64,000 bases of DNA from Gaiellaceae bacterium (GTDB taxonomy: Bacteria; Actinomycetota; Thermoleophilia; Gaiellales; Gaiellaceae), in assembly GCA_026002995.1 (NCBI GenBank), contig BPGK01000001.1:186001-250000 (forward strand), written 5' to 3'. The notes under the pieces were generated by a model. The model did not search any database. It saw nothing but the letters and a program-made list of their open reading frames with translations, and was not told the origin of the DNA. A program made the translations under genes and the position numbers. Position 1 is the stretch's first letter, and each line of letters begins with the position of its first letter. This document shows positions 49,477 through 64,000 of this stretch, piece after piece.

Positions 49477-50730
49477 GTGAAGGTGCTGCTCGTGACGATG
49501 TACTTCCCACCCGCGGGCGGAGGCGGCGTGCAGCGCTCGCTCAAGCTCGCGCAGTACCTCCCCGCGCTCGGCATCGAGACGCACGTGCTCGCCCCCGACG
49601 ACCCGAAGTGGGTGCACCGCGATGCGGAGCAGCGCGTCCCGACGCAGGCGTGGATCCACCGCGTCCGCTACCTCGGCCCGCGCGCGCGAAGGCCGAGGCA
49701 GGAGCTGCGAGCGGCCGCCGACGGGCTCGAGCGCGTGCTCGTGCACGCCCAGGTGACAGCCCGCCGCCTCCTCCTCCCGGACGCGAGCGTGACCTGGAAC
49801 GTGACCGCGATCCCGGCGGCGATCCGGATCGTGCGTAGCGAGGGTATCGATGCCGTGATCACGACCTCGCCGCCAGGATCGATCCACTTCGTCGGCGCTG
49901 CGGTCCAGCGCGCCACGGGCGCGCGCTGGCTCGCCGACCTCCGGGACCCGCTTGTTGCCAATCAGCATCGCCGTGCCGACACCGCGGCCACGCGCGCGCG
50001 CCAGGCGACGAACGAGCGCCTCGCCCGGCTCGTGGCGGCGAGGGCGGATGCGATCTCCTGCGTCTCCGAGGCGATCGCCGACGAGGTGCGCGCGCTCTCC
50101 GCGCGCGGGGTGGTGCGCACGATCGCGAACGGCTGCGACTTCGACGACTTCGCCGGGCTCGAGTACGAGCCGGCGTCCCGCTTTCGGATCACGCACACGG
50201 GGAGCTTCTTCGGCCGGCGCGACCCGAGACCGTTCCTGCAGGCGCTCGTCGACTCCGGCCTCGACCTCGAGGCGCGGTTCGTCGGGGACTTCCGGGACGC
50301 CGACCGCGAGTGGGCCGAGGCGCTCGGGCTCGGCGACCGACTGCGGCTCGTCCCCTACGCGCCGCGCGCCGAGGCGCTTCGTCTACAGCGGGACTCCGAG
50401 GCGCTCCTCCTCCTCGTTCCCGATGCGGACGGACGCGGCCAGGGCGTCCTCTCCGGGAAGGTCTTCGAGTACCTCGCGGCGCGCCGGCCCATCCTCGCCG
50501 TCGTCCCTCCCGACGGCGCCGCGGCCGCGCTCGTCCGCGAGACGAGCGCCGGGATCGTCGTCGCTCCAGACGACGTCGAAGGAATCCGCGCCGCGCTCGA
50601 GGAGCTGCACGGACGCTTCCTCGACGGCGGTCTGGCCGATGTCGAGCTCACCGAGGAGGAGCGCGAGCGGCTCTCGCGCCGCGCCCGGGTCGAGGAGCTC
50701 GCCGAGCTGCTGCGGGAGATCGCAGCGTGA
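49477..50730 (+). CDS. GT4-family glycosyltransferase
   Basis: This 417-residue GT-B enzyme begins MKVLLVTMYFPPAGGGGVQRS, the Gly-rich acceptor-domain loop of GT4 enzymes that build surface glycans. LADLRDPLVANQH (about 149-161) is typical of a subclass annotated as glycosyl transferase family 1 with DLRDP. The donor domain includes ITHTGSFFGRRDPRPFL, YAPRAEALRLQRDSEALLLL and GKVFEYLAARRPILAV (about 328-343), with the EYLA donor contact. GTG 49477 gives the canonical N-terminal strand. Its stop overlaps the Wzy-like gene (GTGA), beginning a tightly packed run of seven genes that ends at 56340. Sugar is unknown. Confidence 0.9.
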   Translation: MKVLLVTMYFPPAGGGGVQRSLKLAQYLPALGIETHVLAPDDPKWVHRDAEQRVPTQAWIHRVRYLGPRARRPRQELRAAADGLERVLVHAQVTARRLLLPDASVTWNVTAIPAAIRIVRSEGIDAVITTSPPGSIHFVGAAVQRATGARWLADLRDPLVANQHRRADTAATRARQATNERLARLVAARADAISCVSEAIADEVRALSARGVVRTIANGCDFDDFAGLEYEPASRFRITHTGSFFGRRDPRPFLQALVDSGLDLEARFVGDFRDADREWAEALGLGDRLRLVPYAPRAEALRLQRDSEALLLLVPDADGRGQGVLSGKVFEYLAARRPILAVVPPDGAAAALVRETSAGIVVAPDDVEGIRAALEELHGRFLDGGLADVELTEEERERLSRRARVEELAELLREIAA

Positions 50731-52100
50731 CGAGCGCCGCGCTTGCCCTGCGTGACCGGCGTGCCGAGCGCGTGCTCGTCCAGCCGCTCCTCGACGGGCT
50801 CTTCCTCCTGACCGCGTTCATGGTCACGTTCCACAAGCTCCAGTGGGAGCTCGCCGGGTCGCTCATCGTCTCGGACGTCCTCACCTCGGTGTTCCTGCTC
50901 GCCTTCCTCTGGGATCGGCTCGAGCGGGGCGACCTGCGCCTGACGCGCAGCGCCGCGGTGGCGCTCGCGTTCCTCGTCGCGTTCGCGCTCGTCTATTTGG
51001 CGGGCTTCTACAACCTCGACACGGCGCAGGCGTTCGACCAGTGGTGGAAGGGGTTCGTGAAGTTCGTGCTCCACTTCGGCTTCGTCGTCGCGGGCGTCTC
51101 CCTCCTCGCGCGCAGGCCGCTCCGGATGTACTGGTACGCGCTCGCCGCCTTCCTCGGCGGGATCGCCGTCAACGCGCTCTACGGCGTGATCCAGCTCGTC
51201 GTCGCGGAGGTGACGGGTGCGAACCTCGACTCCATCCTCATCGAGCCGCTGACGTCGCGGCAGACCGGGATCAACGTGTTCGGCGTCGTCGGCGGCGTGC
51301 AGCCCGTCTACCGGCCGAACGGGCTCGCCGGCGATCCGAACCACCTCGGCATCGAGCTCCTGCTCCCGTTGCTCGTCCTGCTCCCGCTCTACCTCCGGCT
51401 CGAGCGTGGCCACCGGCTGCGCACGCCGCTGGCTGCGCTCCTCGTCTTCCTCCTCGTCGTCCAGCTCGCCACCCTCTCGCGGAGCGGTCTGCTCGGGCTC
51501 GCCGTGGGCGGCCTCGTGCTCGCGCTCCCCTACCGCCGGCACCTCCGCCGTCCGGCCTTCCTCGTTCCGCTCGGCGCGGTCGTCGCGATCGTCGCGTCCG
51601 TTGTGCTGGCGCGGCTCGACTTCTTCCTGACCGTGCTGCGCGCTCGGACGAACACGAGCCGCGGGGCCGCCTCGCCCCACTTCGAGGTCTACACCTTCAT
51701 CCCAGACATCCTCCAGACGCATCCCGCGCTCGGGCTCGGGTTGAACAACTTCTCCGTCTACTACGAGTTCGTGACCGGGAGGGAGGACTTCGGGCCGCAC
51801 TCGTTCTACGTCGCGACCCTGGTGGAGACGGGGCTCGTCGGCACCGCGCTCTTCGCGGTCTTCGTCGTCTGGCTCTTCGCGCGCCTCGGGGCGGCGCGGC
51901 GTCTCGGCCGGGCGCTGCGCGCCGCGGGCGACCCGCTCGAGCGACGTGTCACGCCGCTCGCCTGGGGGATGACCGCCGCGCTCGCCGCCACGCTCGCAGC
52001 GAACCTCTTCTACCTGACGATGACGTTCTACTACTTCTACGTCTACGCCACCCTCGCCGTCGCGCTCCCCGTCGTCTTCGGCCGGCGCCGTCCCGGATGA
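50727..52100 (+). CDS. O-antigen polymerase/ligase-like membrane protein (Wzy family)
   Basis: This 457-residue protein has about 11-12 membrane helices and belongs to the Wzy_C/O-antigen ligase group. The large loop contains VYRPNGLAGDPNHLGIELLLPLLVLL (key RPNGLAGDPNHLG, about 190-202), a segment often seen in actinobacterial members. THPALGLGLNNFSVYYEF and GPHSFYVATLVETGLVGTALF (key PHSFYVATLVETGL, with the conserved His and Glu) form the ligase signature. It probably polymerises a lipid-linked repeat unit outside the membrane. GTG 50727 overlaps the preceding GT4, and its stop overlaps the next GT4. It differs from the protein at 21264, so the window has two polymerase/ligase candidates. 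Confidence 0.88.
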   Translation: MTSAALALRDRRAERVLVQPLLDGLFLLTAFMVTFHKLQWELAGSLIVSDVLTSVFLLAFLWDRLERGDLRLTRSAAVALAFLVAFALVYLAGFYNLDTAQAFDQWWKGFVKFVLHFGFVVAGVSLLARRPLRMYWYALAAFLGGIAVNALYGVIQLVVAEVTGANLDSILIEPLTSRQTGINVFGVVGGVQPVYRPNGLAGDPNHLGIELLLPLLVLLPLYLRLERGHRLRTPLAALLVFLLVVQLATLSRSGLLGLAVGGLVLALPYRRHLRRPAFLVPLGAVVAIVASVVLARLDFFLTVLRARTNTSRGAASPHFEVYTFIPDILQTHPALGLGLNNFSVYYEFVTGREDFGPHSFYVATLVETGLVGTALFAVFVVWLFARLGAARRLGRALRAAGDPLERRVTPLAWGMTAALAATLAANLFYLTMTFYYFYVYATLAVALPVVFGRRRPG

Positions 52101-53107
52101 GGGCCCTCGTCGTGACGACGTCGTATCCGCGCGATGCGGACGACGTCGCCGGCTCCTTCGTCCGGGACGCGGTCGAGGCGCTGCGCCACGCCGGCGTCGA
52201 GGTCTCGGTCGTGTCGCCGGCGAGCGTTCCGCACTTCGGCCTCGCCTATGGCGACGGGATCGCCGGCAACCTGCGCAGGCGGCCGTGGAAGGTGGTGTTC
52301 GTGCCGCTCTTCCTGCTCGCGCTCGGGCGGGCGGCCCGGCGCGAGGCGCGTGGCGCGGACGTCGTGCACGCGCACTGGCTCCCCTCGGCGCTCCCGGCGC
52401 TCGCGGCGCGCAGGCCGCTCGTCGTCCAGCTCTGGGGTACGGACGTCGAGATCGCCCGGCGAGCGCCGTGGGCCTTCCGTTGGCTCCTCCGTCGCGCGCG
52501 GCTCGTCCTCTGCCCCTCGCGTGCCCTCGCCGAGGAGGCGCGCGCGCTCGGCGGGCGGGACGTCCGGGTGGTCGCTCCGGGGGTAGCGGTGCCCGACGTC
52601 GTCGCCGAGCCGGAGGAGCCGCCGCACGTCCTCTACGTCGGTCGGCTCTCGGAGGAGAAGGGGATCCTCGAGCTCGCGGAGGCGACGGAGGGGATGCGGC
52701 GGGTCGTCGTGGGTGACGGGCCGCTCCGTGACCGCGTGCCGGACGCGCTCGGCTTCGTCGCGCCGAGCAGGATCGGCCCGTACTTCGAGCGGGCAGCGGT
52801 CGTCGCGTGCCCGTCGCGCCGGGAGGGATACGGCGTCGTCGCGCGGGAGGCGATGGCGCACGGACGGCCCGTGGTCGCCTCGGCGGTGGGAGGGTTGCTC
52901 GACGCCGTGGAGGACGGCGTCACGGGGTTCCTCGTGCCGCCGCGCGACCCGCGGGCGCTCCGGGAGGCGCTCGAGCGCCTACTCGCCGACTCCGAGCTCC
53001 GTGCGCGGATGGGGGTGGCGGCGCGCGAGCGCGCGCGAGAGCGCTTCTCTCCGGAGGCCGCGGCGCGCGGGACGATCGAGGCCTACGGCGCCGCCCTTCG
53101 TGCCTGA
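52097..53107 (+). CDS. GT4-family glycosyltransferase (second of the cluster)
   Basis: This 336-residue GT-B enzyme has the N-terminus RALVVTTSYPRDADDVAGSFV, a pattern of GT4 proteins related to Wbu/KanE-like transferases, and VVHAHWLPSALPAL for acceptor-side contact (about 87-100). The donor half has VLYVGRLSEEKGILELAEA (about 178-196) and SRREGYGVVAREAMAHGRPVVASAVGG (key EGYGVVAREAMAHGRPVV), the ExxxxxxxE donor motif. ATG 52097 overlaps the Wzy-like gene (ATGA). It is likely to add one sugar of the lipid-linked unit. The following NeuB-like gene starts 29 bases later. Confidence 0.9.
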   Translation: MRALVVTTSYPRDADDVAGSFVRDAVEALRHAGVEVSVVSPASVPHFGLAYGDGIAGNLRRRPWKVVFVPLFLLALGRAARREARGADVVHAHWLPSALPALAARRPLVVQLWGTDVEIARRAPWAFRWLLRRARLVLCPSRALAEEARALGGRDVRVVAPGVAVPDVVAEPEEPPHVLYVGRLSEEKGILELAEATEGMRRVVVGDGPLRDRVPDALGFVAPSRIGPYFERAAVVACPSRREGYGVVAREAMAHGRPVVASAVGGLLDAVEDGVTGFLVPPRDPRALREALERLLADSELRARMGVAARERARERFSPEAAARGTIEAYGAALRA

Positions 53108-53136
53108 CCGACCGCGCCCACGAGTACCATCGCGCC

Positions 53137-54225
53137 GTGGCCGAGCTGTACGTCGACGGGAGGCGCATCGCGGACGACACGGACGTCTATGTGATCGCCG
53201 AGATCGGGAACAACCACCAGGGAGACGTCGAGAAGGCGAAGGCGCTCATCCACGCAGCGAAGGAGTGCGGTGTCGACGCCGTGAAGCTCCAGAAGCGGGA
53301 CAACCGGCGGCTCTACACGCGCGCGCTCTACGACGCTCCCTACGACAACGAGCACTCGTTCGGTGCGACGTACGGGGAACACCGGGAGGCGCTCGAGCTC
53401 TCGCCGGCGGAGTGGCTCGAGCTGCGGGAGTTCTCCCGCGAGGAGGGGGTGACGCTGTTCGGCACCGCGTTCGACGAGTCGAGCGCAGACCTCCTCGCAG
53501 AGCTCGGGATGCCGGCGTTCAAGATCGCGTCCGGCGATCTCACGAACACGCCGCTCCTGCGCCACGTCGCGTCGTTCGGACGGCCGCTCTTCCTCTCGAC
53601 GGGCGGCGGCACGCTGGAAGACGTCGAACGGGCCGTCGACACGATCCTCCCGATCAACCCGCAGCTCTGCCTCCTCCAGTGCACGGCGTCGTACCCGTGC
53701 GACGTCGAGGAGCTCGACCTCCGGGTGATCGAGATGTACCGCGAGCGCTTTCCCGACCTCGTCGTGGGGCTCTCCGACCACCAGGACGGGATCGCGATGT
53801 CGCTCGTCGCGTACATGCTCGGCGCGCGCGTGATCGAGAAGCACTTCACCTTGAGCCACTCCTGGCGAGGCACCGACCACGCGTTCTCGCTCATGCCCGA
53901 GGGGATGCGCAAGCTCGTCCGCGACCTCCGCCGCGCGCCGCGGGCTCTCGGGGACGGAGAGAAGCGTCGCTACCCGAGCGAGGCCCGACCGCTCGAGAAG
54001 ATGGGCAAGAAGCTCGTCGCGGCGCGCGACCTCCCGGCGGGGCACGTGCTCGCCCCCGGGGACCTGGTCGCGAAGTCCCCGGCCGACGGTGGGCTCCCGC
54101 CGTACGAGCTCGACCGACTCATCGGCCTGCGCCTGACTGCGCCGCTCGCGTTCGAGCAGGAGGTGACATTCGACGTGGTCGAGGCGAGCGAGGTACTCAC
54201 CGGCACCCGACCCGGCGAGGCGTGA
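53137..54225 (+). CDS. NeuB-like nonulosonate (sialic acid type) synthase
   Basis: This 362-residue enzyme is of the NeuB family, which condenses phosphoenolpyruvate with an N-acetyl-hexosamine to make a nine-carbon acid. The TIM-barrel domain has VIAEIGNNHQGDVEKAKALI (about 18-37), VDAVKLQKRDNRRLYT, FKIASGDLTNTPLL, and VIEKHFTLSHSWRGTDHAFS (key EKHFTLSHSWRGTDH, the metal His-bearing segment). A C-terminal SAF/antifreeze-like domain starts around 285 (KKLVAARDLPAGHVLAPGDL). GTG 53137 is the start. Its stop overlaps a KdsC-like phosphatase gene, hinting at a phosphorylated intermediate as in the Neu5Ac-9-phosphate route. No NeuA-type cytidylyltransferase or NeuC-type epimerase is in the window. 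Confidence 0.87.
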   Translation: MAELYVDGRRIADDTDVYVIAEIGNNHQGDVEKAKALIHAAKECGVDAVKLQKRDNRRLYTRALYDAPYDNEHSFGATYGEHREALELSPAEWLELREFSREEGVTLFGTAFDESSADLLAELGMPAFKIASGDLTNTPLLRHVASFGRPLFLSTGGGTLEDVERAVDTILPINPQLCLLQCTASYPCDVEELDLRVIEMYRERFPDLVVGLSDHQDGIAMSLVAYMLGARVIEKHFTLSHSWRGTDHAFSLMPEGMRKLVRDLRRAPRALGDGEKRRYPSEARPLEKMGKKLVAARDLPAGHVLAPGDLVAKSPADGGLPPYELDRLIGLRLTAPLAFEQEVTFDVVEASEVLTGTRPGEA

Positions 54226-54707
54226 CCGAGCTAGAGGCCGTTCGGCTCGTCGTCTTCGACTTCGACGGCGTCTTCACCGACAACCGCGTGTGGACGAACG
54301 AGCGCGGCGAGGAGAGCGTGGCTTGCTGGCGCGGCGACGCGCAGGGGCTCCGGCGGCTCGAGGAGGTCGGCGTCGACTGCTTCATCCTCTCGACCGAGAC
54401 GAACCCGGCGGTCGGAGCGCGAGCGCGGAAGATCCGAGCCGAGTGCATCCAGGGCGTCGCGGACAAGCTGTCCGTACTGCGAGCGGAGGTCGAGCGGCGC
54501 GGCGTCTCGCTCGCCGAGACGGCGTACCTCGGCAACGACGTGAACGACGCTGCGTGTCTGGAAGCCGTCGGCCTCGCGGTCGTGCCCGCCGACGCGTGGC
54601 CGGAGGTGGTTCCGCTCGCCTCGCTCGTCCTCGAGCGCGAGGGGGGCCGCGGCTGTGTGCGGGAGCTCTGCGACGCGATCTGGCACGCGAAGCGAGGGGC
54701 TGCGTGA
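54222..54707 (+). CDS. KdsC-like HAD phosphatase
   Basis: This 161-residue protein of the HAD superfamily, C0-type KdsC group, lacks a cap and usually forms tetramers. Motif I is VVFDFDGVFTDN (Asp 13 nucleophile, Asp 15). FILSTETNP is motif II, Lys 82 in ADKLSVL is motif III, and YLGNDVNDAACL (about 102-113) is motif IV. Relatives dephosphorylate KDO-8-phosphate or nonulosonate-9-phosphate, or are fused to CMP-sialate synthase. GTG 54222 overlaps the NeuB-like stop (GTGA), so the two products are probably made together and act in sequence. Its stop overlaps the SDR start. Confidence 0.88.
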   Translation: MTELEAVRLVVFDFDGVFTDNRVWTNERGEESVACWRGDAQGLRRLEEVGVDCFILSTETNPAVGARARKIRAECIQGVADKLSVLRAEVERRGVSLAETAYLGNDVNDAACLEAVGLAVVPADAWPEVVPLASLVLEREGGRGCVRELCDAIWHAKRGAA

Positions 54708-55489
54708 ACGACCCGCTGTTCGATCTCTCGGGCCGCATCGCGGTCGTGACCGGCGGCGCCGGGCAGCTCGGCGCCGTCTACACGGCCGGGCTCGTCGAGC
54801 GCGGGATGCGCGTCGCCGTGCTCGACGTCGTCGAGACGGCCGTCCCAGAGGGCGCCCGCGCCTACCGTGCCGACGTCACCGATCGGTCTGCCCTCGAGGA
54901 GACGCTCGCGACCGTCGAGTCCGAGTGGGGGACGCCGCACCTGCTCGTGAACAATGCCGGCCTCGACTCTCCGCCGGACGCTCCCGCGGAGGAGGTCGGC
55001 CCGTTCGAGTCCTACCCCGAGGCGTCGTTCGACGAGGTCATGGCGGTGAACGTCAAGGGGACGTTCCTCTGCTGCCAGGTGTTCGGGGCGGCGATGGCGC
55101 GAGCCGGTCGCGGCTCGATCGTCAACATCTCCTCGGTCTACGGGATGCTCTCCCCTGTACAGGAGCTCTACGCCTTCCGTCGGGCTCGTGGCGAGGAGTT
55201 CACGAAGCCCGTGGCGTACTCGGTCTCGAAGTCCGCCATCCTGAACTTGACGCGCTACCTCGCGACGTACTGGGCGAAGGCGGGTGTTCGCGTCAACACG
55301 CTGACCCTGGCGGGCGTCTGGAACGACCAGCCCCGCGAGTTCCTCGAGGCCTACGAGGCTCGCGTTCCTCTCGGGCGCATGCTGCGCGCAGAGGAGGCGC
55401 TCGGTGCGCTCGTCTTCCTGGCCTCCGACGCGTCCTCGTACGTGACCGGCTCGAACGTCGTCGTCGACGGGGGGTGGTCGGCGTGGTGA
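54704..55489 (+). CDS. Short-chain dehydrogenase/reductase
   Basis: This 261-residue classical SDR has the cofactor motif TGGAGQLG at 16-23 (the usual TGxxxGxG), NNAG at 83-86, the catalytic Ser in NISSVYG (about 141-147), and Tyr 172 and Lys 176 in AYSVSKSAI. The insertion PVQELYAFRRARGEEFTKPV before the Tyr is characteristic of a subgroup found in nonulosonate and flagellar glycan loci (PtmA-like). The ending VTGSNVVVDGGWSAW is typical. GTG 54704 overlaps the phosphatase stop. It may oxidise or reduce a sugar used with NeuB, but the substrate is not established. Confidence 0.88.
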   Translation: MNDPLFDLSGRIAVVTGGAGQLGAVYTAGLVERGMRVAVLDVVETAVPEGARAYRADVTDRSALEETLATVESEWGTPHLLVNNAGLDSPPDAPAEEVGPFESYPEASFDEVMAVNVKGTFLCCQVFGAAMARAGRGSIVNISSVYGMLSPVQELYAFRRARGEEFTKPVAYSVSKSAILNLTRYLATYWAKAGVRVNTLTLAGVWNDQPREFLEAYEARVPLGRMLRAEEALGALVFLASDASSYVTGSNVVVDGGWSAW

Positions 55490-56340
55490 GCGAGGGGAGG
55501 ACGAGAGCCGAGCACGAGCTCTTGCAGGAGGTTCGGGAGCTTCGCGCCCGCGTCGCCGCCTACGAGTCGAGTCGCTGGTGGCGGCTGCACCCTCGGTTCG
55601 CGCTGAGCCGGCTCCGTGGCAGTCGTGCTGCTCCTGCCCTCGACGACGGGCTGTCGAAGCCGCGCTACCCGTTCGATTTCAGCGAGGCCGATCGTGAGCT
55701 CTGCGAGCGCGTCGCCCCGTACACGATGACAACGCCGCCGCGGATCCATGCGCTCGCCCGTGCGGTCGAGTACGTGGTCGGCGCGCGGATTCCCGGAGCC
55801 ATGGTCGAGTGCGGCGTCTGGCGGGGCGGGAGCATGATGGCGGTGGCGCTCACGCTCCTCCGTGCGGGGGTAAGCGACCGCGAGCTCTGGCTCTACGACA
55901 CATACGCCGGGATGACCGCGCCGGGCGACGCGGACGTCTGCTACTCGGGCGAGCGGGCGAGCGACCTGCTCGTCGAGAAGGAGCGCGCCTCCGAGGTCTG
56001 GGCCTACGCGAGCCTCGAGGAGGTCCGTAGCGCGATGCGTGGAACGGGCTATCCAGAGAGTCGGATCCGATTCATCGAAGGGCCGGTCGAGGAGACCGTG
56101 CCCAAAGCGATGCCCGACGAGATCGCGCTGCTTCGGCTCGACACCGACTGGTACCAGTCGACCAAGCACGAGCTCGTCCATCTCTATCCGCGCCTCGTCG
56201 TCGGCGGGGTGCTCCTCCTCGACGACTACGGCTACTGGGAAGGCCAGCGGCAGGCAGTCGACGAGTACTTCGCGGAGCAGGGGATCACGATCCTCCTGAA
56301 CCGCATCGACCACTCGGCTCGGATCGGCGTCAAGCTCTGA
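55486..56340 (+). CDS. TylF/MycF-type SAM-dependent O-methyltransferase
   Basis: This 284-residue protein matches the TylF/MycF macrocin O-methyltransferase family, which methylates sugar hydroxyls in a metal-dependent way. The first 45 residues form a coiled-coil lead with RWWRLHPRFAL. GAMVECGVWRGGSMMAVAL (about 104-122) is the SAM-binding loop, LYDTYAGMTAPGDAD follows, and LRLDTDWYQSTKHELVHLYPRL (key LRLDTDWYQST) and LLDDYGYWEGQ hold the metal and catalytic Asp residues. GTG 55486 is chosen since the SDR stop overlaps it; GTG 55483 is equally possible. It may methylate the local glycan. Its 3' end overlaps the convergent broken sulfotransferase. Confidence 0.88.
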   Translation: MSEGRTRAEHELLQEVRELRARVAAYESSRWWRLHPRFALSRLRGSRAAPALDDGLSKPRYPFDFSEADRELCERVAPYTMTTPPRIHALARAVEYVVGARIPGAMVECGVWRGGSMMAVALTLLRAGVSDRELWLYDTYAGMTAPGDADVCYSGERASDLLVEKERASEVWAYASLEEVRSAMRGTGYPESRIRFIEGPVEETVPKAMPDEIALLRLDTDWYQSTKHELVHLYPRLVVGGVLLLDDYGYWEGQRQAVDEYFAEQGITILLNRIDHSARIGVKL

Positions 56341-57044: not shown

Positions 57045-59009
57045 TCACTCGTGAAGTGGGTCGATGAGGGACTTTGCGCGGCGGCCGACGAAGCGGCGAG
57101 TCGGCAGCCGTGCACGCACGCGTACGAGAAGCCCGGGTACGCCCTCGTTCCGCACGACGGACGCCGCGCGCCGGAAGAGTCCCTGGCTCGGGGGTGGCTG
57201 TCTCGATTCCCGGGCCTCGGATCGTGCGAGCGCGGCGGCGAGTGTCGCCGCGAGAGCAGCGATCCCGGGACTGTCGTGACCGCGTGTCTCGAAGAGACGG
57301 AGCACGGCGAGCCCTTCGCCCGGAACATCGGAGATCGTTCCCGGGCGTCCGCGGTGCGTGGCGAACGCGATTGGCAGAGAGACGATCTGCCCGCCCCGGA
57401 GCGCGATCCCCGCCAGGAGCGGCCAGTCCGGGTCGCTCGTACTCGGCGCGAGCTCTTCGTCGGTGAGCAGTGCACGCCGAACGAGCGCGATGACGCCGTA
57501 CTGGTTCTCCACGAGCCCGAGCGCTCCGGGATCGCCGAGAAAGACGCGGACTCCGTCCGGGGTGTCCGCAGGTCGAACCGCGGTCGTCACGGCGTCCGCT
57601 CCAGTCAGCGCTTGCGCCTCGACGAGGGCGTCGAGGAGGCCGGCGTCGGGATCGTCGTCTCGATCCACGAAGACGACCCAGTCGTGACTGGCGCGGGCGA
57701 GGCCCGCTGCGCGCGTGTCGCTCTCGATGTGCTCGAGCGTGAGGTCGACCGCTCCGATGGGGGTTCGCGACGGGTACGAAGGCGCGGCGACGACGCTGAC
57801 GGCGGAGATCCGGGGCCCGCGGGCTCGGGGGATTGGCTCGATCGTCTCGACGAGCTCGACCCAGCGGACAAGTGCTGCCCGCGGATCGAAGCCGGGCGTC
57901 GCCGGGCCGACGCCGTCGGCCGCCGTGAGCGCCGAGCGGAGCGCGCGGGCGAGATCATCGGCCGTCGGGTCGAAGAGCGTCCGCGCGTGGTCTTCCTCGG
58001 CGACGAGCTCGGGAATGCCTCCCGTGCGTGCAGCGAGGAAGGGGACGCCGTGCTCGAGGCACTCCGAGACCGTGTAGGGCGAGTTGTCGAGGAGCGAGGG
58101 CATGACGGCGAGCGTTCCCGGAACGCGCAGCTCGGCGAGTGCCGCGATCGGGTCGAGGCCGGTCTCGAAGCGCAGCGAGCGAAGATGGGCCTGCGTCTCA
58201 CGCGGAAGCGCCGCGCGAATCCGCTCCGTGGTCCAGCGAGGCGTCTCGCGTCCGAGAAAGAGGAGGTCGATGTTCTCGACGACCGGGCCGAGCTGCGCGA
58301 GGGCGTCGAGGAAGATCCGAACGCCCTTGCCTTCGCGGAGCTGCCCGAAGAAGGCGAGCCGCGTGACTCGCGCCCGTCCCTCGGCGCGTACCGGCTCCTC
58401 GCCGAGGGCGACGGAGCGCCAGAGACAGGGCACGACGAGCTCGTTGCGCGCAGCCGGCCAGCCTCGCTCTCGCTCCCACGCGAAGAGCCAGGCGCTGGGG
58501 CTGACGGCGGCGTCGGCGAGCTCGAGCGCGGCACGCTCGGCGATCTCTTCCCCGTAGCGCGCGACGGTGTCGGGCACCTTGCGCGCGAACTCGGCCAGCA
58601 TGCGCGCAGGACCGTGGCAGTAGAGGATGACGGCGGTTCGCTCTGGCTCGAGCCCGAGTTGACGTGCGCGCAGGGTCGCCCAAGCGAGCCCACGCCAGTC
58701 GTCGGCTACGAGGACGTCCGGCTTGATCGCGCGGGCCGTCTCGAAGACGGAGTAGCTCGGCGCGAGGTAGGACGGGAAGACGCGCTTGCTCGGCTCGAGG
58801 TGCGTCACACGCACTCCCAGGTCGGCGTACAGGCTCTTCCACGGCTCCGCGAGCTCTCCGGCGGAACGTCCGGGCGCGACGAGCAGGTCGACCTCGTGGC
58901 CGTAGCGTGCGAGCGCGAGCGCGAGCAGCGAGTCGGCAGTCGCCGCGCCCCCCGTCCCGTCCATGCCGAGCACTTCGCTCGCGGCGACGACGACGCGCCG
59001 ACCGCTCAC
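57045..59009 (-). CDS. Two-domain glycosyltransferase, paralogue 1 (GT4 + GT2-like)
   Basis: This protein of about 654 residues combines a GT-B domain with a C-terminal GT-A-like domain. The first starts VVVAASEVLGMDGTGGAATA, has VLVADDWRGLAWATLRA and VILYCHGPARMLAEFA, and the donor site RLAFFGQLREGKGVRIFLDA, then MPSLLDNSPYTVSECLEHGVPF (about 330-351), the E-containing donor motif. The second, from about 425, has WVVFVDRDDDPDAGLLDAL (DxD-like) and LGLVENQYGVIALVRRALL, but lacks part of the first nucleotide-binding strand compared with paralogues 2 and 3, so it may be shortened. GTG 59009 overlaps the stop of paralogue 2 (GTGA). Expected role: adding sugars to a surface glycan. Confidence 0.85.
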   Translation of the reverse strand: MSGRRVVVAASEVLGMDGTGGAATADSLLALALARYGHEVDLLVAPGRSAGELAEPWKSLYADLGVRVTHLEPSKRVFPSYLAPSYSVFETARAIKPDVLVADDWRGLAWATLRARQLGLEPERTAVILYCHGPARMLAEFARKVPDTVARYGEEIAERAALELADAAVSPSAWLFAWERERGWPAARNELVVPCLWRSVALGEEPVRAEGRARVTRLAFFGQLREGKGVRIFLDALAQLGPVVENIDLLFLGRETPRWTTERIRAALPRETQAHLRSLRFETGLDPIAALAELRVPGTLAVMPSLLDNSPYTVSECLEHGVPFLAARTGGIPELVAEEDHARTLFDPTADDLARALRSALTAADGVGPATPGFDPRAALVRWVELVETIEPIPRARGPRISAVSVVAAPSYPSRTPIGAVDLTLEHIESDTRAAGLARASHDWVVFVDRDDDPDAGLLDALVEAQALTGADAVTTAVRPADTPDGVRVFLGDPGALGLVENQYGVIALVRRALLTDEELAPSTSDPDWPLLAGIALRGGQIVSLPIAFATHRGRPGTISDVPGEGLAVLRLFETRGHDSPGIAALAATLAAALARSEARESRQPPPSQGLFRRAASVVRNEGVPGLLVRVRARLPTRRFVGRRAKSLIDPLHE

Positions 59010-61030
59010 GGGCGCCTCCACGCTCGGAGTGCGAGAGTCGTGAGGGGACGCCGTCGAGGCGGTCTCCCTCCGCCTGTCTGGCCCACACGGCTCGCGTGCT
59101 GCGCAGCCTGCGCGGCGAGCCCAGCGGCGAGCCGAGCGGCGGAGTCGGCCTCGTCCGGGAGCGCCCGCTCGGCGTCCTCGAGCACGAGCAGCGCGTCTCC
59201 GGGAGCTCCGTCCACCGTTCCCGGTCGGCGGCTCGTCGTCACGAGCGGCCGGGGCACGGAGACGATGCGCGCCCCCTGCAGCCGCAGTCGGGCGAGGAGC
59301 ACCCAGTCGGGGTCGTGCTCGCTCGGCCAGGCGGTGGAGAGATCGCGGAGCAGAGATCTGCGCACGAGGGCGACGGTGCCGTAGGCGTTCTCGAGCACGC
59401 CCAGTCCGCCCGGCTCGCCGAGGAAGAGGTGGACGCGCTCGCGATCGGCCTCGCGCAGGCGAAGGCCGCAGGTCACGACATCCGCTCCGGAGCTGGCTCG
59501 GGCTCGGGCGAGGGTGACGAGGAGGTCGGGGTCGGGGACGTCCTCCTCGTCCAGGAAGCAGACGAGGGGCGCTGCACCGGCCTCGAGACCTGCTTGCCGT
59601 GCCGCTTCGAACGTCGAGCGGGCTGCCCGTACGACCTCGACCCCGGCGGGGAGCTCGCTCGGCTCGGGGACACGTGGGCCGGCGAGGGCGACGACCACCG
59701 TCGCTTCGACCCCCTCCTGGTGGGCGAGCGCCTCCAGGCAGCGTGCGAGCCTCTGCCCGGAGCCGCGAGAGGTGACGACGACGTCGATACGCTCGACGGA
59801 AGCCTCAGGCCGAGGGCTTGGGGCGCTCGGAGAGAGGCGCACGGTCTCGTCCCAGGCGGTCAGCGCAGCCTCGAGGTCGTACGCGGGAGCCGCCGGAGCG
59901 GGCAGCGTCCCCGCGCGGAGCACCCGCTCGAGCGCCTCGACGAGGCCGTCGACGGTGGGCTCGAAGAGCACACGCTCACGGTCTTCCGGCGCGACGAGCT
60001 CGCTCGTGCCGCCGGCGCTGCTCGCGAGGAACGGGACCCCGAGCTCCAGACACTCGTAGATCGCGTTGGGAGAGTTGTCGCCCAGCGCCGGCATGACGAC
60101 GAGCGTTCCCGGCCGAGCGAGACGGAGGAGCGCGGCCGGTTGGTCGAGCCCGCTCGCGAACGAGACGCTCCGCAGCGCTCGCCGAGCCTTCCTCGGCAGC
60201 GCTCGCTCGACGCGTTTCCTGGGCCAGGTCGGCGTCGGCGCCCCCAGGAGCTCCAACTCGAGCCCACGAAGGAGGGACGGATCGAGGCGCTCGAGGGCCG
60301 CAATGAGCAACCCGATCCCCTTCCGCTCCTCGAGTCGACCGAAGAAGCAGAGGCGTGCGATCGTCTCTCCGGCCCGACGGCTCGATGGCTTGCTCGCAAG
60401 CTCACCGAGGGCAGCTCGGCGTGTCAGCAGCGGGACGACCCGTCGCTGGGCGGGCAGGGCCCAGCCTCGTGCAGCCATCCACTCCAGCATGTACGTGCTG
60501 GGGCTGACGAGCACGTCGGCGAGCTCGACCGCCGAACGCTCGAGGATGGTTGCCGAGGCGAGCTCGGCCGGGTCGGTGACGCGGGCGCGTCGGGCGCACT
60601 CGTTGATCCACTGACTCGTCCCGTGGCAGTAGACGACGAAGAGTGTGCCGCGGAGCGCGAGGTCGAGATGACGAAGGCGCAGCGAGGCGGCTGCCGGAGC
60701 GCCGAGGTCCTGCGCGATGACGACGTCCGGTGGCGCAGCGACGAGGCGCTCGGCGATACGCGTCGTGCGGTCCCAGTGCCAGTCCTTGCGTGATCCGTCG
60801 GGCGGGAGGACAGGTCGCACGACGACTCCGAAGCGCTCGTAGAACGCCATCCAGTTCCCCTTCCGAAGCGCCGCCGCTTGGAGGCCGTAGTAGAGCACCT
60901 CGACGCGGTGGCCGAGGCGCGCCAGTGCGATCGCGAGCCACGAGTGCGCAGTCCCGATCCCGCCTGCTCGCCCGGCTCCGAGCAGCTCCCCCGTCACGAG
61001 GGTGACGTTCCTCGGGCTCGGCGTGTTCAC
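59006..61030 (-). CDS. Two-domain glycosyltransferase, paralogue 2 (GT4 + GT2-like)
   Basis: This 674-residue protein follows the same plan. The GT-B part has VTLVTGELLGAGRAGGIGTA, VVIAQDLGAPAAASLRLRH, LFVVYCHGTSQWINECA, LCFFGRLEERKGIGLLIAAL and MPALGDNSPNAIYECLELGVPF. The GT-A-like part starts near residue 410 (ERIDVVVTSRGSGQRLARCL), with VCFLDEEDVPDPDLLVTLA as the acidic site and LGVLENAYGTVALVRRSLL. Two stretches of its DNA (59184-59794 and 59889-60031) match paralogue 3 with no mismatch found, while the N-terminal half is clearly diverged. ATG 61030 overlaps the stop of paralogue 3. The two active domains suggest that each protein may add two sugars in turn. Confidence 0.88.
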   Translation of the reverse strand: MNTPSPRNVTLVTGELLGAGRAGGIGTAHSWLAIALARLGHRVEVLYYGLQAAALRKGNWMAFYERFGVVVRPVLPPDGSRKDWHWDRTTRIAERLVAAPPDVVIAQDLGAPAAASLRLRHLDLALRGTLFVVYCHGTSQWINECARRARVTDPAELASATILERSAVELADVLVSPSTYMLEWMAARGWALPAQRRVVPLLTRRAALGELASKPSSRRAGETIARLCFFGRLEERKGIGLLIAALERLDPSLLRGLELELLGAPTPTWPRKRVERALPRKARRALRSVSFASGLDQPAALLRLARPGTLVVMPALGDNSPNAIYECLELGVPFLASSAGGTSELVAPEDRERVLFEPTVDGLVEALERVLRAGTLPAPAAPAYDLEAALTAWDETVRLSPSAPSPRPEASVERIDVVVTSRGSGQRLARCLEALAHQEGVEATVVVALAGPRVPEPSELPAGVEVVRAARSTFEAARQAGLEAGAAPLVCFLDEEDVPDPDLLVTLARARASSGADVVTCGLRLREADRERVHLFLGEPGGLGVLENAYGTVALVRRSLLRDLSTAWPSEHDPDWVLLARLRLQGARIVSVPRPLVTTSRRPGTVDGAPGDALLVLEDAERALPDEADSAARLAAGLAAQAAQHASRVGQTGGGRPPRRRPLTTLALRAWRRP
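59184..59794 (-). repeat. 611-bp segment repeated at 61232-61842
   Basis: Base-by-base comparison found no difference between this stretch and 61232-61842 (offset 2048). It covers almost all of the GT-A-like domain of paralogue 2. The flanks diverge abruptly on both sides. Confidence 0.85.
59889..60031 (-). repeat. 143-bp segment repeated at 61931-62073
   Basis: No mismatch was found with 61931-62073 (offset 2042). It codes for the end of the GT-B domain (SAGGTSELVAPEDRERVLF onward). It is separated from the 611-bp copy by 94 diverged bases (88 in paralogue 3). Confidence 0.85.
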
Positions 61031-63051
61031 GGCACGCTTCCCCGAGTCGCGCGCAGCATCTTGGCCCCGGCATGCGTCGTTGTGCGGAGGAGCCCGCGCT
61101 CTCGCACCGCCCGGATTCCGCGTCTCAGAAGTCCCGCCTCGCCAGCCACGGCTGCTGGCTCGCCGATCGCGAGGGCGAGCCGGGCGAGGTTCTCGAGCGG
61201 CTCGGGATAGGCACGCTCGAGCTCGCCCGCGACGAGCAGCGCGTCTCCGGGAGCTCCGTCCACCGTTCCCGGTCGGCGGCTCGTCGTCACGAGCGGCCGG
61301 GGCACGGAGACGATGCGCGCCCCCTGCAGCCGCAGTCGGGCGAGGAGCACCCAGTCGGGGTCGTGCTCGCTCGGCCAGGCGGTGGAGAGATCGCGGAGCA
61401 GAGATCTGCGCACGAGGGCGACGGTGCCGTAGGCGTTCTCGAGCACGCCCAGTCCGCCCGGCTCGCCGAGGAAGAGGTGGACGCGCTCGCGATCGGCCTC
61501 GCGCAGGCGAAGGCCGCAGGTCACGACATCCGCTCCGGAGCTGGCTCGGGCTCGGGCGAGGGTGACGAGGAGGTCGGGGTCGGGGACGTCCTCCTCGTCC
61601 AGGAAGCAGACGAGGGGCGCTGCACCGGCCTCGAGACCTGCTTGCCGTGCCGCTTCGAACGTCGAGCGGGCTGCCCGTACGACCTCGACCCCGGCGGGGA
61701 GCTCGCTCGGCTCGGGGACACGTGGGCCGGCGAGGGCGACGACCACCGTCGCTTCGACCCCCTCCTGGTGGGCGAGCGCCTCCAGGCAGCGTGCGAGCCT
61801 CTGCCCGGAGCCGCGAGAGGTGACGACGACGTCGATACGCTCCTTCGGCTCGGGAGCCGCGGGCCTCCGTGGCCGTATCGCGACCGCCTCCAGCCAGAGG
61901 TCGAGCGAGGAGCGCTCGGCGCGTGGAGCTGCCGCCGGAGCGGGCAGCGTCCCCGCGCGGAGCACCCGCTCGAGCGCCTCGACGAGGCCGTCGACGGTGG
62001 GCTCGAAGAGCACACGCTCACGGTCTTCCGGCGCGACGAGCTCGCTCGTGCCGCCGGCGCTGCTCGCGAGGAAGGGGAGACCGAGCACGACGCACTCGAC
62101 CACCGTGTTCGGAGAGTTGTCCTCGAGGGACGGCATCACGACGAGCGTCCCGGGCTGCGCGAGCGCGGCGAGCGCTTCGCTTCGACCGAGCTCTGTCTCG
62201 AACGTGATGGCTCCGAGCGTCGTCCGCACTCGTTCGGACATGTCTTCGAGGATGCGCGCGGGAGTCCATGCCGCGGTCGCCGTGCCGAAGAACGCGACCT
62301 CCACTCCTCGGAGGAGCTCCGGGTCGAGCGCCTCGAGCGCCTCCAAGAAGATGCGGATTCCCTTTCGGACCTCCAGCCGACCGAAGAAGGCGAGTCGTCG
62401 CGGTGCCAGACGATGTGTCTGTGTGACGCCGTCCGCTTGTACGCCGAGCTCGTGCCTGCGGGTCAGGTACGGAATCACGAACTCATGGGGTGGCAGGCGC
62501 CAGCCCTGGCCGCGCATCCAGTCGAGCATGTACTCATTCGCGCTGACCACGACATCCGCGAGCTCGAACGACTCGCGCTCGAGCAGCGAGACGGCGAGCG
62601 CTCCGGGAAGCACGCGCGGCTTGCGGGACGCGTAGGCGACCCAGCGCCGGGTGCCGGAGCAGCGGATGACGAAGGTCGTGTCGGCGAGCCCGAGCCCGAG
62701 CTCCCGGAGCCGGAGCGCGACGACGCACGGCGCTCCGAGGTCCTGGCTGACGACCACGTCCGGGGCGCGCTCGAGGAGGTTGCGCGCCACCACCAGGCTC
62801 TTCTCGAGGAACGCGGGGGCGAGGTCGAGCTCGAGCTCGCCGGGGCGACGAATGACGATGCCTGCGTCGGCGTACCGCGTCCGCCACTCGGGGTCGGACG
62901 TCTCTTCGCCTACTCCGGTGTAGAGCATGTCCACTCGGTGGCCCGCCTCGGCGAGCGCGAGCGCGTCGAGGGTCGTCGCAGTTCCCAGGCCGCCGCAGCG
63001 GTGGTAGCCGAGGAGCTCGTCTGCGACGAAGGTGATGTGCTTGCTCTGCAT
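61027..63051 (-). CDS. Two-domain glycosyltransferase, paralogue 3 (GT4 + GT2-like)
   Basis: This 674-residue protein is the first gene of the minus-strand trio. The GT-B half has ITFVADELLGYHRCGGLGTA, VVVSQDLGAPCVVALRLREL, FVIRCSGTRRWVAYAS, LAFFGRLEVRKGIRIFLEAL and MPSLEDNSPNTVVECVVLGLPF. The C-terminal GT-A-like half is identical in sequence to that of paralogue 2 over roughly 200 residues (ERIDVVVTSRG through PGDALLV), and then differs again in the last 55 residues. ATG 63051 is chosen because the first beta-strand begins there; an in-frame start 30 codons upstream adds Arg-rich sequence and would overlap the divergent dehydrogenase. The trio is coupled by four-base overlaps. Acceptor unknown. 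Confidence 0.88.
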   Translation of the reverse strand: MQSKHITFVADELLGYHRCGGLGTATTLDALALAEAGHRVDMLYTGVGEETSDPEWRTRYADAGIVIRRPGELELDLAPAFLEKSLVVARNLLERAPDVVVSQDLGAPCVVALRLRELGLGLADTTFVIRCSGTRRWVAYASRKPRVLPGALAVSLLERESFELADVVVSANEYMLDWMRGQGWRLPPHEFVIPYLTRRHELGVQADGVTQTHRLAPRRLAFFGRLEVRKGIRIFLEALEALDPELLRGVEVAFFGTATAAWTPARILEDMSERVRTTLGAITFETELGRSEALAALAQPGTLVVMPSLEDNSPNTVVECVVLGLPFLASSAGGTSELVAPEDRERVLFEPTVDGLVEALERVLRAGTLPAPAAAPRAERSSLDLWLEAVAIRPRRPAAPEPKERIDVVVTSRGSGQRLARCLEALAHQEGVEATVVVALAGPRVPEPSELPAGVEVVRAARSTFEAARQAGLEAGAAPLVCFLDEEDVPDPDLLVTLARARASSGADVVTCGLRLREADRERVHLFLGEPGGLGVLENAYGTVALVRRSLLRDLSTAWPSEHDPDWVLLARLRLQGARIVSVPRPLVTTSRRPGTVDGAPGDALLVAGELERAYPEPLENLARLALAIGEPAAVAGEAGLLRRGIRAVRERGLLRTTTHAGAKMLRATRGSVP
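61232..61842 (-). repeat. 611-bp segment repeated at 59184-59794
   Basis: This is the copy in paralogue 3 of the stretch at 59184-59794; no mismatch was seen. See the paralogue entries for what it encodes. Confidence 0.85.
61931..62073 (-). repeat. 143-bp segment repeated at 59889-60031
   Basis: This is the copy in paralogue 3 of the stretch at 59889-60031; no mismatch was seen. Confidence 0.85.
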
Positions 63052-63100
63052 GAGCTGGTGCAGGCTAACGAGGGTCGGAGGCCGGCAGCGCCGCCTGAGT

Positions 63101-64000
63101 ATGCTCGCGCACGTACCGGTGGGCGGCCTCCTCGCAGACACTCCGAACCTCGTCGACGGTCAGCTCTCCGAGGCTGCGTCGGGAAAGTGGCTCGAGAAGC
63201 GTCGGCCCGCCGACGGGACGCTCCTGTGCCGGATCGCTCGGTCCGGGGCCGCGGACGTCGAGCAGGCGGTCGCGGCGGCCACCGCCGCGCAGCCGGCCTG
63301 GGCGGAGGCGACGGCGGTCGCGCGTGGCGAGACGCTCCGCGAGCTGGCCCTCCTCCTTCGCGCGCATCGGCAGGAGTTGGCCGAGATCGTCGTCGAGGAG
63401 ACGGGAAAGTCCCTCGAGCTCGCCCTCGGAGAGGTGGACGCCGCTGTCGAGATGGGGTTCTTCGTCGCCGGGGAGGGACGGCGCTCGTACGGGCGAACGC
63501 TCACCTCGGCGATGGCGCACCGAACCGTCTACACGACCCGGCAGCCGCTCGGCGTCGCGGCGCTGATCACGAGCTTCAACACGCCGCTGCCGAACATTGC
63601 CTGGAAGGCCTTCCCGGCTCTGCTCTGCGGGAACGCGGCGGTCGCGAAGCCGTCCGAGCACACGCCTGCCTCCGCGCTCCGCTTCGGTGAGCTCGCCCTC
63701 GAGGCAGGCGTCCCGCCCGGCGTGCTGAACGTCGTGCACGGCCTCGGCTCGGAGGCGGGCGCGGCGCTCGTCGAGCACGAGGACGTGGCGCTCGTCAGCT
63801 TCACGGGCTCCGCCGGTACCGGCCGGTGGATCAACGAGCGGGCCGGTCGTCGCCTCGCGAAGGTGTGCCTGGAGCTGGGAGGGAAGAACGCGCTCGTCGT
63901 CTGCGATGACGCCGACCTCGACAACGCCGAGCGGTGGGCGCTCGCCTCGGCCTTCTCGAACGCCGGTCAGCGCTGCGCCGCCGCGAGCAGGATCGTCGCC
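63101..64000 (+). CDS. Aldehyde dehydrogenase, 5' part (runs off the window)
   Basis: These are the first 300 codons of an NAD(P)-dependent aldehyde dehydrogenase, open to the right edge. The N-terminus PNLVDGQLSEAASGKWLEKR is typical. PLGVAALITSFNTPLPNIAWK carries the conserved Asn region, GNAAVAKPSEHTPASA the cofactor Lys-Pro-Ser-Glu site, and VSFTGSAGTGRWINE the Rossmann Gly motif. The general-base Glu is in LELGGKNALVV, and the catalytic Cys is in FSNAGQRCAAAS near residue 294. ATG 63101 lies 49 bases from the divergent glycosyltransferase start, so a promoter pair is likely there. The substrate cannot be told. Only the C-terminal oligomerisation part is missing. Confidence 0.92.
   Translation, partial: MLAHVPVGGLLADTPNLVDGQLSEAASGKWLEKRRPADGTLLCRIARSGAADVEQAVAAATAAQPAWAEATAVARGETLRELALLLRAHRQELAEIVVEETGKSLELALGEVDAAVEMGFFVAGEGRRSYGRTLTSAMAHRTVYTTRQPLGVAALITSFNTPLPNIAWKAFPALLCGNAAVAKPSEHTPASALRFGELALEAGVPPGVLNVVHGLGSEAGAALVEHEDVALVSFTGSAGTGRWINERAGRRLAKVCLELGGKNALVVCDDADLDNAERWALASAFSNAGQRCAAASRIVA

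What the first reader, a model, noticed from the sequence alone, without database searches (positions are those of the whole stretch)
59006..63051. Two tandem giant glycosyltransferase genes share two exactly matching blocks inside otherwise diverged genes
The stretches 59184-59794 and 61232-61842 (611 bases), and 59889-60031 and 61931-62073 (143 bases), show no difference by eye, yet the roughly 90 bases between them and both gene ends are clearly diverged. Whole-gene recent duplication would not give this. Local gene conversion, or selection for one donor-adding domain on different acceptor domains, would. It looks like domain swapping in progress in a surface-glycan locus, which could vary the glycan.
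Basis: seen in the sequence. Interest (0 to 1): 0.62.

Follow-up and report, generated by a model that had tools for sequence, protein, structure and literature searches.

The report
Gene conversion between tandem glycosyltransferase genes
Two neighbouring, long-diverged sugar-transfer enzyme genes in an actinobacterium share two perfectly identical patches (611 and 143 bases), which is best explained by one gene recently copying parts of itself into the other; the process is known, but the very low similarity around the patches makes this a striking example.

Summary
59184-59794 equals 61232-61842 (611/611) and 59889-60031 equals 61931-62073 (143/143). The 94/88-nt linker and both flanks are diverged. 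Outside the blocks A and B are 54% identical with no run over 12 nt. Shuffling never gave a run above 38. The genes lie on the minus strand (A 61027-63051, B 59006-61030, C 57045-59021). Each encodes a GT4 (GT-B) domain fused to a GT2-like domain, beside NeuB, SDR and aldehyde-dehydrogenase genes. Another genus of the family carries similar arrays in the same setting. In the GT4 part A and B are less like each other (42%) than either is like genes from those relatives (45-49%). In the GT2 part A equals B, and both are 55-60% like the relatives. So old paralogues were homogenised recently, in this lineage, only in these patches. Gene conversion is the best explanation. The skipped island is the most variable segment of the family: the last GT4 helix and the tether. 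Assembly could have erased a few differences but could not have made the identity. Not shown: direction, recurrence, selection, any glycan change. The relatives' arrays show no such blocks. Known kind of process; unusual divergence context.

The parts
61027..63051 (-). gene A: GT4 (GT-B) domain fused to GT2-like domain, 674 aa (ATG at 63051; the ORF itself extends to 63141)
   Evidence: ORF; Pfam PF13692, PF13579, PF00534, PF13641 above cut-off
59006..61030 (-). gene B: same architecture, 674 aa; overlaps the end of A by 4 nt
   Evidence: ORF; Pfam
57045..59021 (-). gene C: third array member, 658 aa, not homogenised with A or B
   Evidence: ORF; Pfam; A-C 56% nt in the GT2 region
61232..61842 (-). 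block 1 in A: GT2-like domain, 611 nt identical to B
59184..59794 (-). block 1 in B
61931..62073 (-). block 2 in A: end of the C-terminal Rossmann half of GT4, 143 nt identical to B
59889..60031 (-). block 2 in B
61843..61930 (-). unconverted island in A (88 nt): last GT4 helix (W..E motif) and interdomain tether
   Evidence: 20% aa identity to B; helix 386-397 in the model of B; W aligned to sucrose-phosphate synthase near residue 411
59795..59888 (-). unconverted island in B (94 nt)
   Evidence: as above
52807..54225 (+). NeuB-family synthase (nonulosonate type), neighbour
   Evidence: PF03102 E 2e-76; NeuB_NnaB and PseI matched but below their cut-offs
54290..55489 (+). SDR oxidoreductase, neighbour
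50310..52100 (+). O-antigen ligase/polymerase (Wzy_C), neighbour
63032..64000 (+). aldehyde dehydrogenase, neighbour (continues beyond the window)
   Evidence: L051:33-1550, PF00171

Best explanation
Interlocus gene conversion between two old tandem paralogues. One gene (direction unresolved) served as template for the other over the GT2-like domain and the end of the GT4 domain. This occurred either as two tracts, or as one heteroduplex from which the heterologous linker (different sequence and 6 nt longer in B) was left out or restored. The event is recent enough that no base has changed in 754 nt. Shown: exact identity, sharp edges, ancient divergence of the rest, discordance between the two domains across relatives. 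Inferred: the homologous-recombination step, the one-interrupted-tract detail, and any effect on the glycan.
For: Identity of 100% in both blocks against 54% elsewhere, with sharp edges. In the GT4 part A-B is 42% aa, below A or B to the non-C genes from G066/G067 (45-49%); in block 1 A=B is 100% while relatives are at 55-60%. Trees: GT4 places A and B as separate long branches (0.88, 0.93) in an unresolved fork with the relatives' genes, whereas GT2 makes them one tip. Relatives carry the same array type in the same gene neighbourhood, so the paralogy is older than the event. There is no third source copy in the genome. Block GC (0.735, 0.762) lies within the range of its flanks (0.69-0.77).
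Against: Background identity of 54% is far below what normally supports homologous recombination (conversion mainly above 80% identity: PMC3924818), so initiation needed a local patch of higher identity that is no longer visible, or an already homogenised ancestor. Donor and recipient could not be told apart. No population or raw-read data.
Confidence: 0.82

Rival explanations
1. Assembly or polishing artefact: one block's sequence was written into the other gene.
For: The sequencing method is unknown. The contig ends overlap by exactly 34 nt, which could be a k-mer overlap of a short-read assembly. A 611-nt repeat is longer than short reads, and consensus steps can erase a few differences between near-identical copies.
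Against: Consensus errors need prior near-identity; they cannot raise 54%-identical copies to 100% over 611 and 143 nt while sparing 90 nt between. Tails and linkers are separately resolved and all frames are open. The genome is a single contig with overlapping ends.
Confidence: 0.07
2. Both genes were independently overwritten from a third source (imported DNA or a now lost paralogue).
For: Incoming DNA by transformation commonly gives interrupted tracts (general knowledge). The direction between A and B is unresolved.
Against: No third copy in the genome, no close relative of the block in the family, order or class samples, and GC is not foreign. It needs two coincident replacements with the same boundaries.
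Confidence: 0.08
3. Long-running concerted evolution (a recurrent form of the best explanation, not exclusive of it): repeated conversion keeps the GT2 module identical while heads, linkers and tails diverge, perhaps under selection.
For: It would explain how conversion can happen at 54% background identity: the block never diverged. The linker is the most variable segment in the whole family.
Against: Relatives' arrays show no within-genome exact blocks of 24 nt or more apart from runs of N and no raised within-genome identity in GT2. C is not included. Edges are abrupt.
Confidence: 0.2
4. Purifying selection alone keeps the GT2 domain identical.
For: None beyond domain conservation.
Against: Third positions are also 100% identical over 754 nt, against about 0.5 elsewhere, and homologous GT2 domains of relatives differ at 40-45% of residues.
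Confidence: 0.01

Closest known systems
Helicobacter pylori futA/futB fucosyltransferase paralogues (PMC2583950)
   Same: Recombination between two paralogous glycosyltransferase genes, exchange of short segments, chimeric genes found in nature.
   Different: There population isolates show the exchange and a Lewis-antigen outcome. Here there is one genome, strongly diverged paralogues, and no phenotype.
PE_PGRS17/PE_PGRS18 gene conversion in Mycobacterium tuberculosis (PMC1762029)
   Same: Conversion between adjacent paralogues in a high-GC actinobacterium, inferred from a shared tract.
   Different: The paper speaks of sequence divergence up to 12%; A and B differ by about 46% outside the blocks. 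There many strains define direction and recurrence.
Domain movement (DOMO) in type I restriction specificity subunits (PMC3077401)
   Same: A whole domain is transferred while the rest of the protein differs.
   Different: DOMO moves a domain between two positions within one gene; here it occupies the same position in two genes.

Membership tests
Interlocus (ectopic) gene conversion | Bounded tract of near-identity, synonymous sites included, between otherwise diverged paralogues | tested here: met
Interlocus (ectopic) gene conversion | Phylogeny of the tract discordant with that of the rest of the gene | tested here: met
   GT4 part A-B 42% vs 45-49% to relatives; GT2 part identical. The finer branching inside the GT4 tree is unresolved.
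Interlocus (ectopic) gene conversion | Non-reciprocal: donor and recipient identifiable | tested here: inconclusive
   No unconverted orthologue available; tail and head similarities do not settle it
Interlocus (ectopic) gene conversion | Unconverted alleles exist in sister strains | not testable with these tools
   None of the 10 same-genus genomes holds an array at significant similarity
Antigenic variation by silent cassettes (pilE/pilS type) | Reservoir of partial silent copies elsewhere | tested here: not met
   Only A, B and C match in the genome; other hits are short or weak; no remnant copy in the flanks
GT4 glycosyltransferases (GT-B fold) | Glyco_transf_4 and Glycos_transf_1 domains above cut-off; GT-B fold | tested here: met
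   (6eji, 6kih, 7qsg, BshA)
GT2 glycosyltransferases (GT-A fold) | Family model above cut-off with catalytic motifs | tested here: inconclusive
   PF13641 35.8 vs 27 bits; FLDEED and DPDW present but 'DDGS'-like segment replaced by VVALAGP; first 50-75 residues missing in most relatives

The most novel reading that the evidence does not exclude
A modular glycosyltransferase array in which one accessory GT2-like module is kept identical on different GT4 heads by repeated conversion, with the GT4 C-terminal helix and tether excluded because they must match their own N-terminal domain. The resulting 611-nt and 143-nt direct repeats would then also let the array lose or gain in-frame chimeric genes.
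Probability: 0.15. Interest if true: 0.55.

Novelty: new member of a known kind. Interest (0 to 1): 0.36.

Why it matters
It is a clean natural example of conversion between paralogues only 54% identical, in an actinobacterial lineage of the class Thermoleophilia, with the skipped island lying exactly at a domain junction. It makes testable whether such conversion depends on previously homogenised patches, and whether the array generates in-frame chimeric transferases in the population.

Tried and rejected
Recent whole-gene duplication: rejected, flanks at 54%. Purifying selection: rejected on synonymous sites. Third template copy in the genome: none. Same phenomenon in relatives' arrays (G066, G067) and in the f10-family genomes G274, G386, G157: no comparable blocks; the largest exact matches are 36 nt or less. 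Close relatives in genome contigs or viral contigs: none confirmed. Decayed fourth copy in the flanks: none. Donor direction from heads, tails and GC: unresolved. AlphaFold model from three sequences: GT4 usable, GT2 not (pLDDT under 50 after residue 404), so helix packing was not measured.

Full report
OBSERVATION. The two exact blocks are real and the coordinates are exact: 59184-59794 = 61232-61842 (611 nt) and 59889-60031 = 61931-62073 (143 nt), neither extendable. The repeat offsets are 2048 and 2042; the 6-nt difference is the length difference of the linker (94 vs 88 nt). On a codon alignment, A and B outside the blocks are 54.4% identical over 1241 sites with a longest run of 12. In 2000 shuffles of all sites the longest run was 38. 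Third-position identity is 1.00 inside and about 0.5 outside, and edges are sharp. In 103 kb of chromosome around the locus no other direct repeat exceeds 24 nt. With no difference in 754 nt, the divergence of the two copies is below about 0.4% (95% bound, rule of three; my calculation).

WHAT THE GENES ARE. The genes read on the minus strand in the order A (61027-63051), B (59006-61030), C (57045-59021), with 4- and 16-nt overlaps, so they are probably co-transcribed. Pfam places a GT4 domain (PF13439/PF13692/PF00534) before a GT2-like domain (PF13641 in A and B; only a sub-threshold match in C). The AlphaFold model of B is usable only for GT4; Foldseek matches GT-B enzymes (6eji, 6kih, 7qsg, BshA). 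Block 2 is the last part of the GT4 C-terminal Rossmann half (ASSAGGTSELV...LPAPAA). Block 1 starts at the first strand of the GT2-like domain (ERIDVVV...) and stops before the variable tail. The skipped island encodes the last GT4 helix (SLDLWLEAVA in A, ALTAWDETVR in B), aligned to the end of the GT4 domain of sucrose-phosphate synthase, plus a Pro-rich tether. In GT-B enzymes this last helix generally crosses back to the N-terminal domain (general knowledge, not measured here).

SURROUNDINGS. Neighbours are an O-antigen ligase-type protein, a NeuB-family synthase and an SDR, a TylF-type methyltransferase, an aldehyde dehydrogenase, a ketopantoate-reductase-like protein and a transketolase. 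This is a surface-glycan, nonulosonate-like locus; the sugar is not identified. Upstream lies a haem biosynthesis cluster.

RELATIVES. The genome is one 2.62-Mb contig whose ends overlap by 34 nt, so it is probably circular. Its class is Thermoleophilia: one same-class genome (G274) has exactly the published length of Conexibacter woesei, 6,359,369 bp. None of ten same-genus genomes has the array at significant similarity, but another genus of the family does (G066, G067, G069). It lies in a similar context: exact 24-42-nt matches of the region after the array to L069 and L071, and of the SDR region to L072, with NeuB, SDR and aldehyde dehydrogenase recognisable by eye in the ORFs there. C has clear counterparts in G066 and G067. 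A and B fall with the remaining relatives' genes in an unresolved fork.

THE KEY TEST. In the GT4 part before block 2, A-B identity is 42%, lower than A or B to the non-C genes of the relatives (45-49%). In block 1 A and B are identical while both are 55-60% identical to the relatives. Old paralogues therefore became identical in part, after separation from the other genus. Synonymous identity excludes selection alone. The relatives' own arrays have no exact blocks of 24 nt or more apart from runs of N and no excess within-genome GT2 identity, so recurrence is not supported.

MECHANISM. Interlocus gene conversion explains every feature, either as two tracts or as one heteroduplex in which the heterologous linker was not copied. 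The linker is the least conserved segment in nearly all family pairs (17-41% aa), so heterology alone can explain why it was skipped; selection to keep each GT4 helix with its own N-terminal half is possible but untested. A difficulty is initiation: conversion mainly occurs above 80% identity (PMC3924818). Either a local patch of higher identity existed in the block before, or the block had been homogenised earlier. Direction is unresolved.

ARTEFACT. Consensus building can erase a few differences between near-identical copies but cannot turn 54% into 100% in two patches while sparing the linker between. At most it would hide a small number of differences and make the event look younger. Read data were not available.

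CONSEQUENCE. The blocks are now tandem direct repeats of 611 and 143 nt. A crossover in either would delete about 2 kb and leave an open in-frame A-head/B-tail gene (665 or 667 aa). That the population does this is an inference.

THE GT2-LIKE DOMAIN. Its name as donor-adding domain is doubtful. A and B keep FLDEED and DPDW, but the usual VVDDGS-type segment reads VVALAGP, and most relatives lack the first 50-75 residues. It may be an inactive or altered module.

COMPARISON. Recombination between paralogous glycosyltransferase genes is known for H. pylori futA/futB (PMC2583950), and adjacent-paralogue conversion in high-GC actinobacteria for PE_PGRS17/18 (PMC1762029). This case is of the same kind, with far more diverged partners.

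Noticed in passing
L071 end (12534), L072 end (11741), L073 end (10116), L069:14491-14568 (run of N): In the draft genomes of relatives, contigs end or have a gap inside array genes, mostly near the GT4/GT2 junction. This could mean unassembled repeats there, or only high GC.
   Followed up: partly
L069:8795-15128, L071:8440-12532: The GT2-like domain of most array genes in relatives has lost varying amounts of its N-terminal half while keeping the DxD-like and DW motifs; looks like progressive decay or re-use of a GT2 module.
   Followed up: partly
L069:16557-17993: Next to the G067 array, on the other strand, a GT4-remnant/GT2 protein with a complete GT2 domain (VSIVVPYRE...VIVADDGS), possibly the ancestral form of the module.
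   Followed up: no
L095:1-34 and L096:5967-6000: The first and last 34 bases of the single-contig genome are identical, suggesting a circular chromosome closed with a k-mer overlap.
   Followed up: no
L083:7794 and 11123 (36 nt), 5928 and 12076 (26 nt): Weak exact direct matches within the two-copy array region of G386, a genome of another family in the class.
   Followed up: no
54655-56340: Open frame with a TylF-type methyltransferase domain between the SDR gene and gene C.
   Followed up: no
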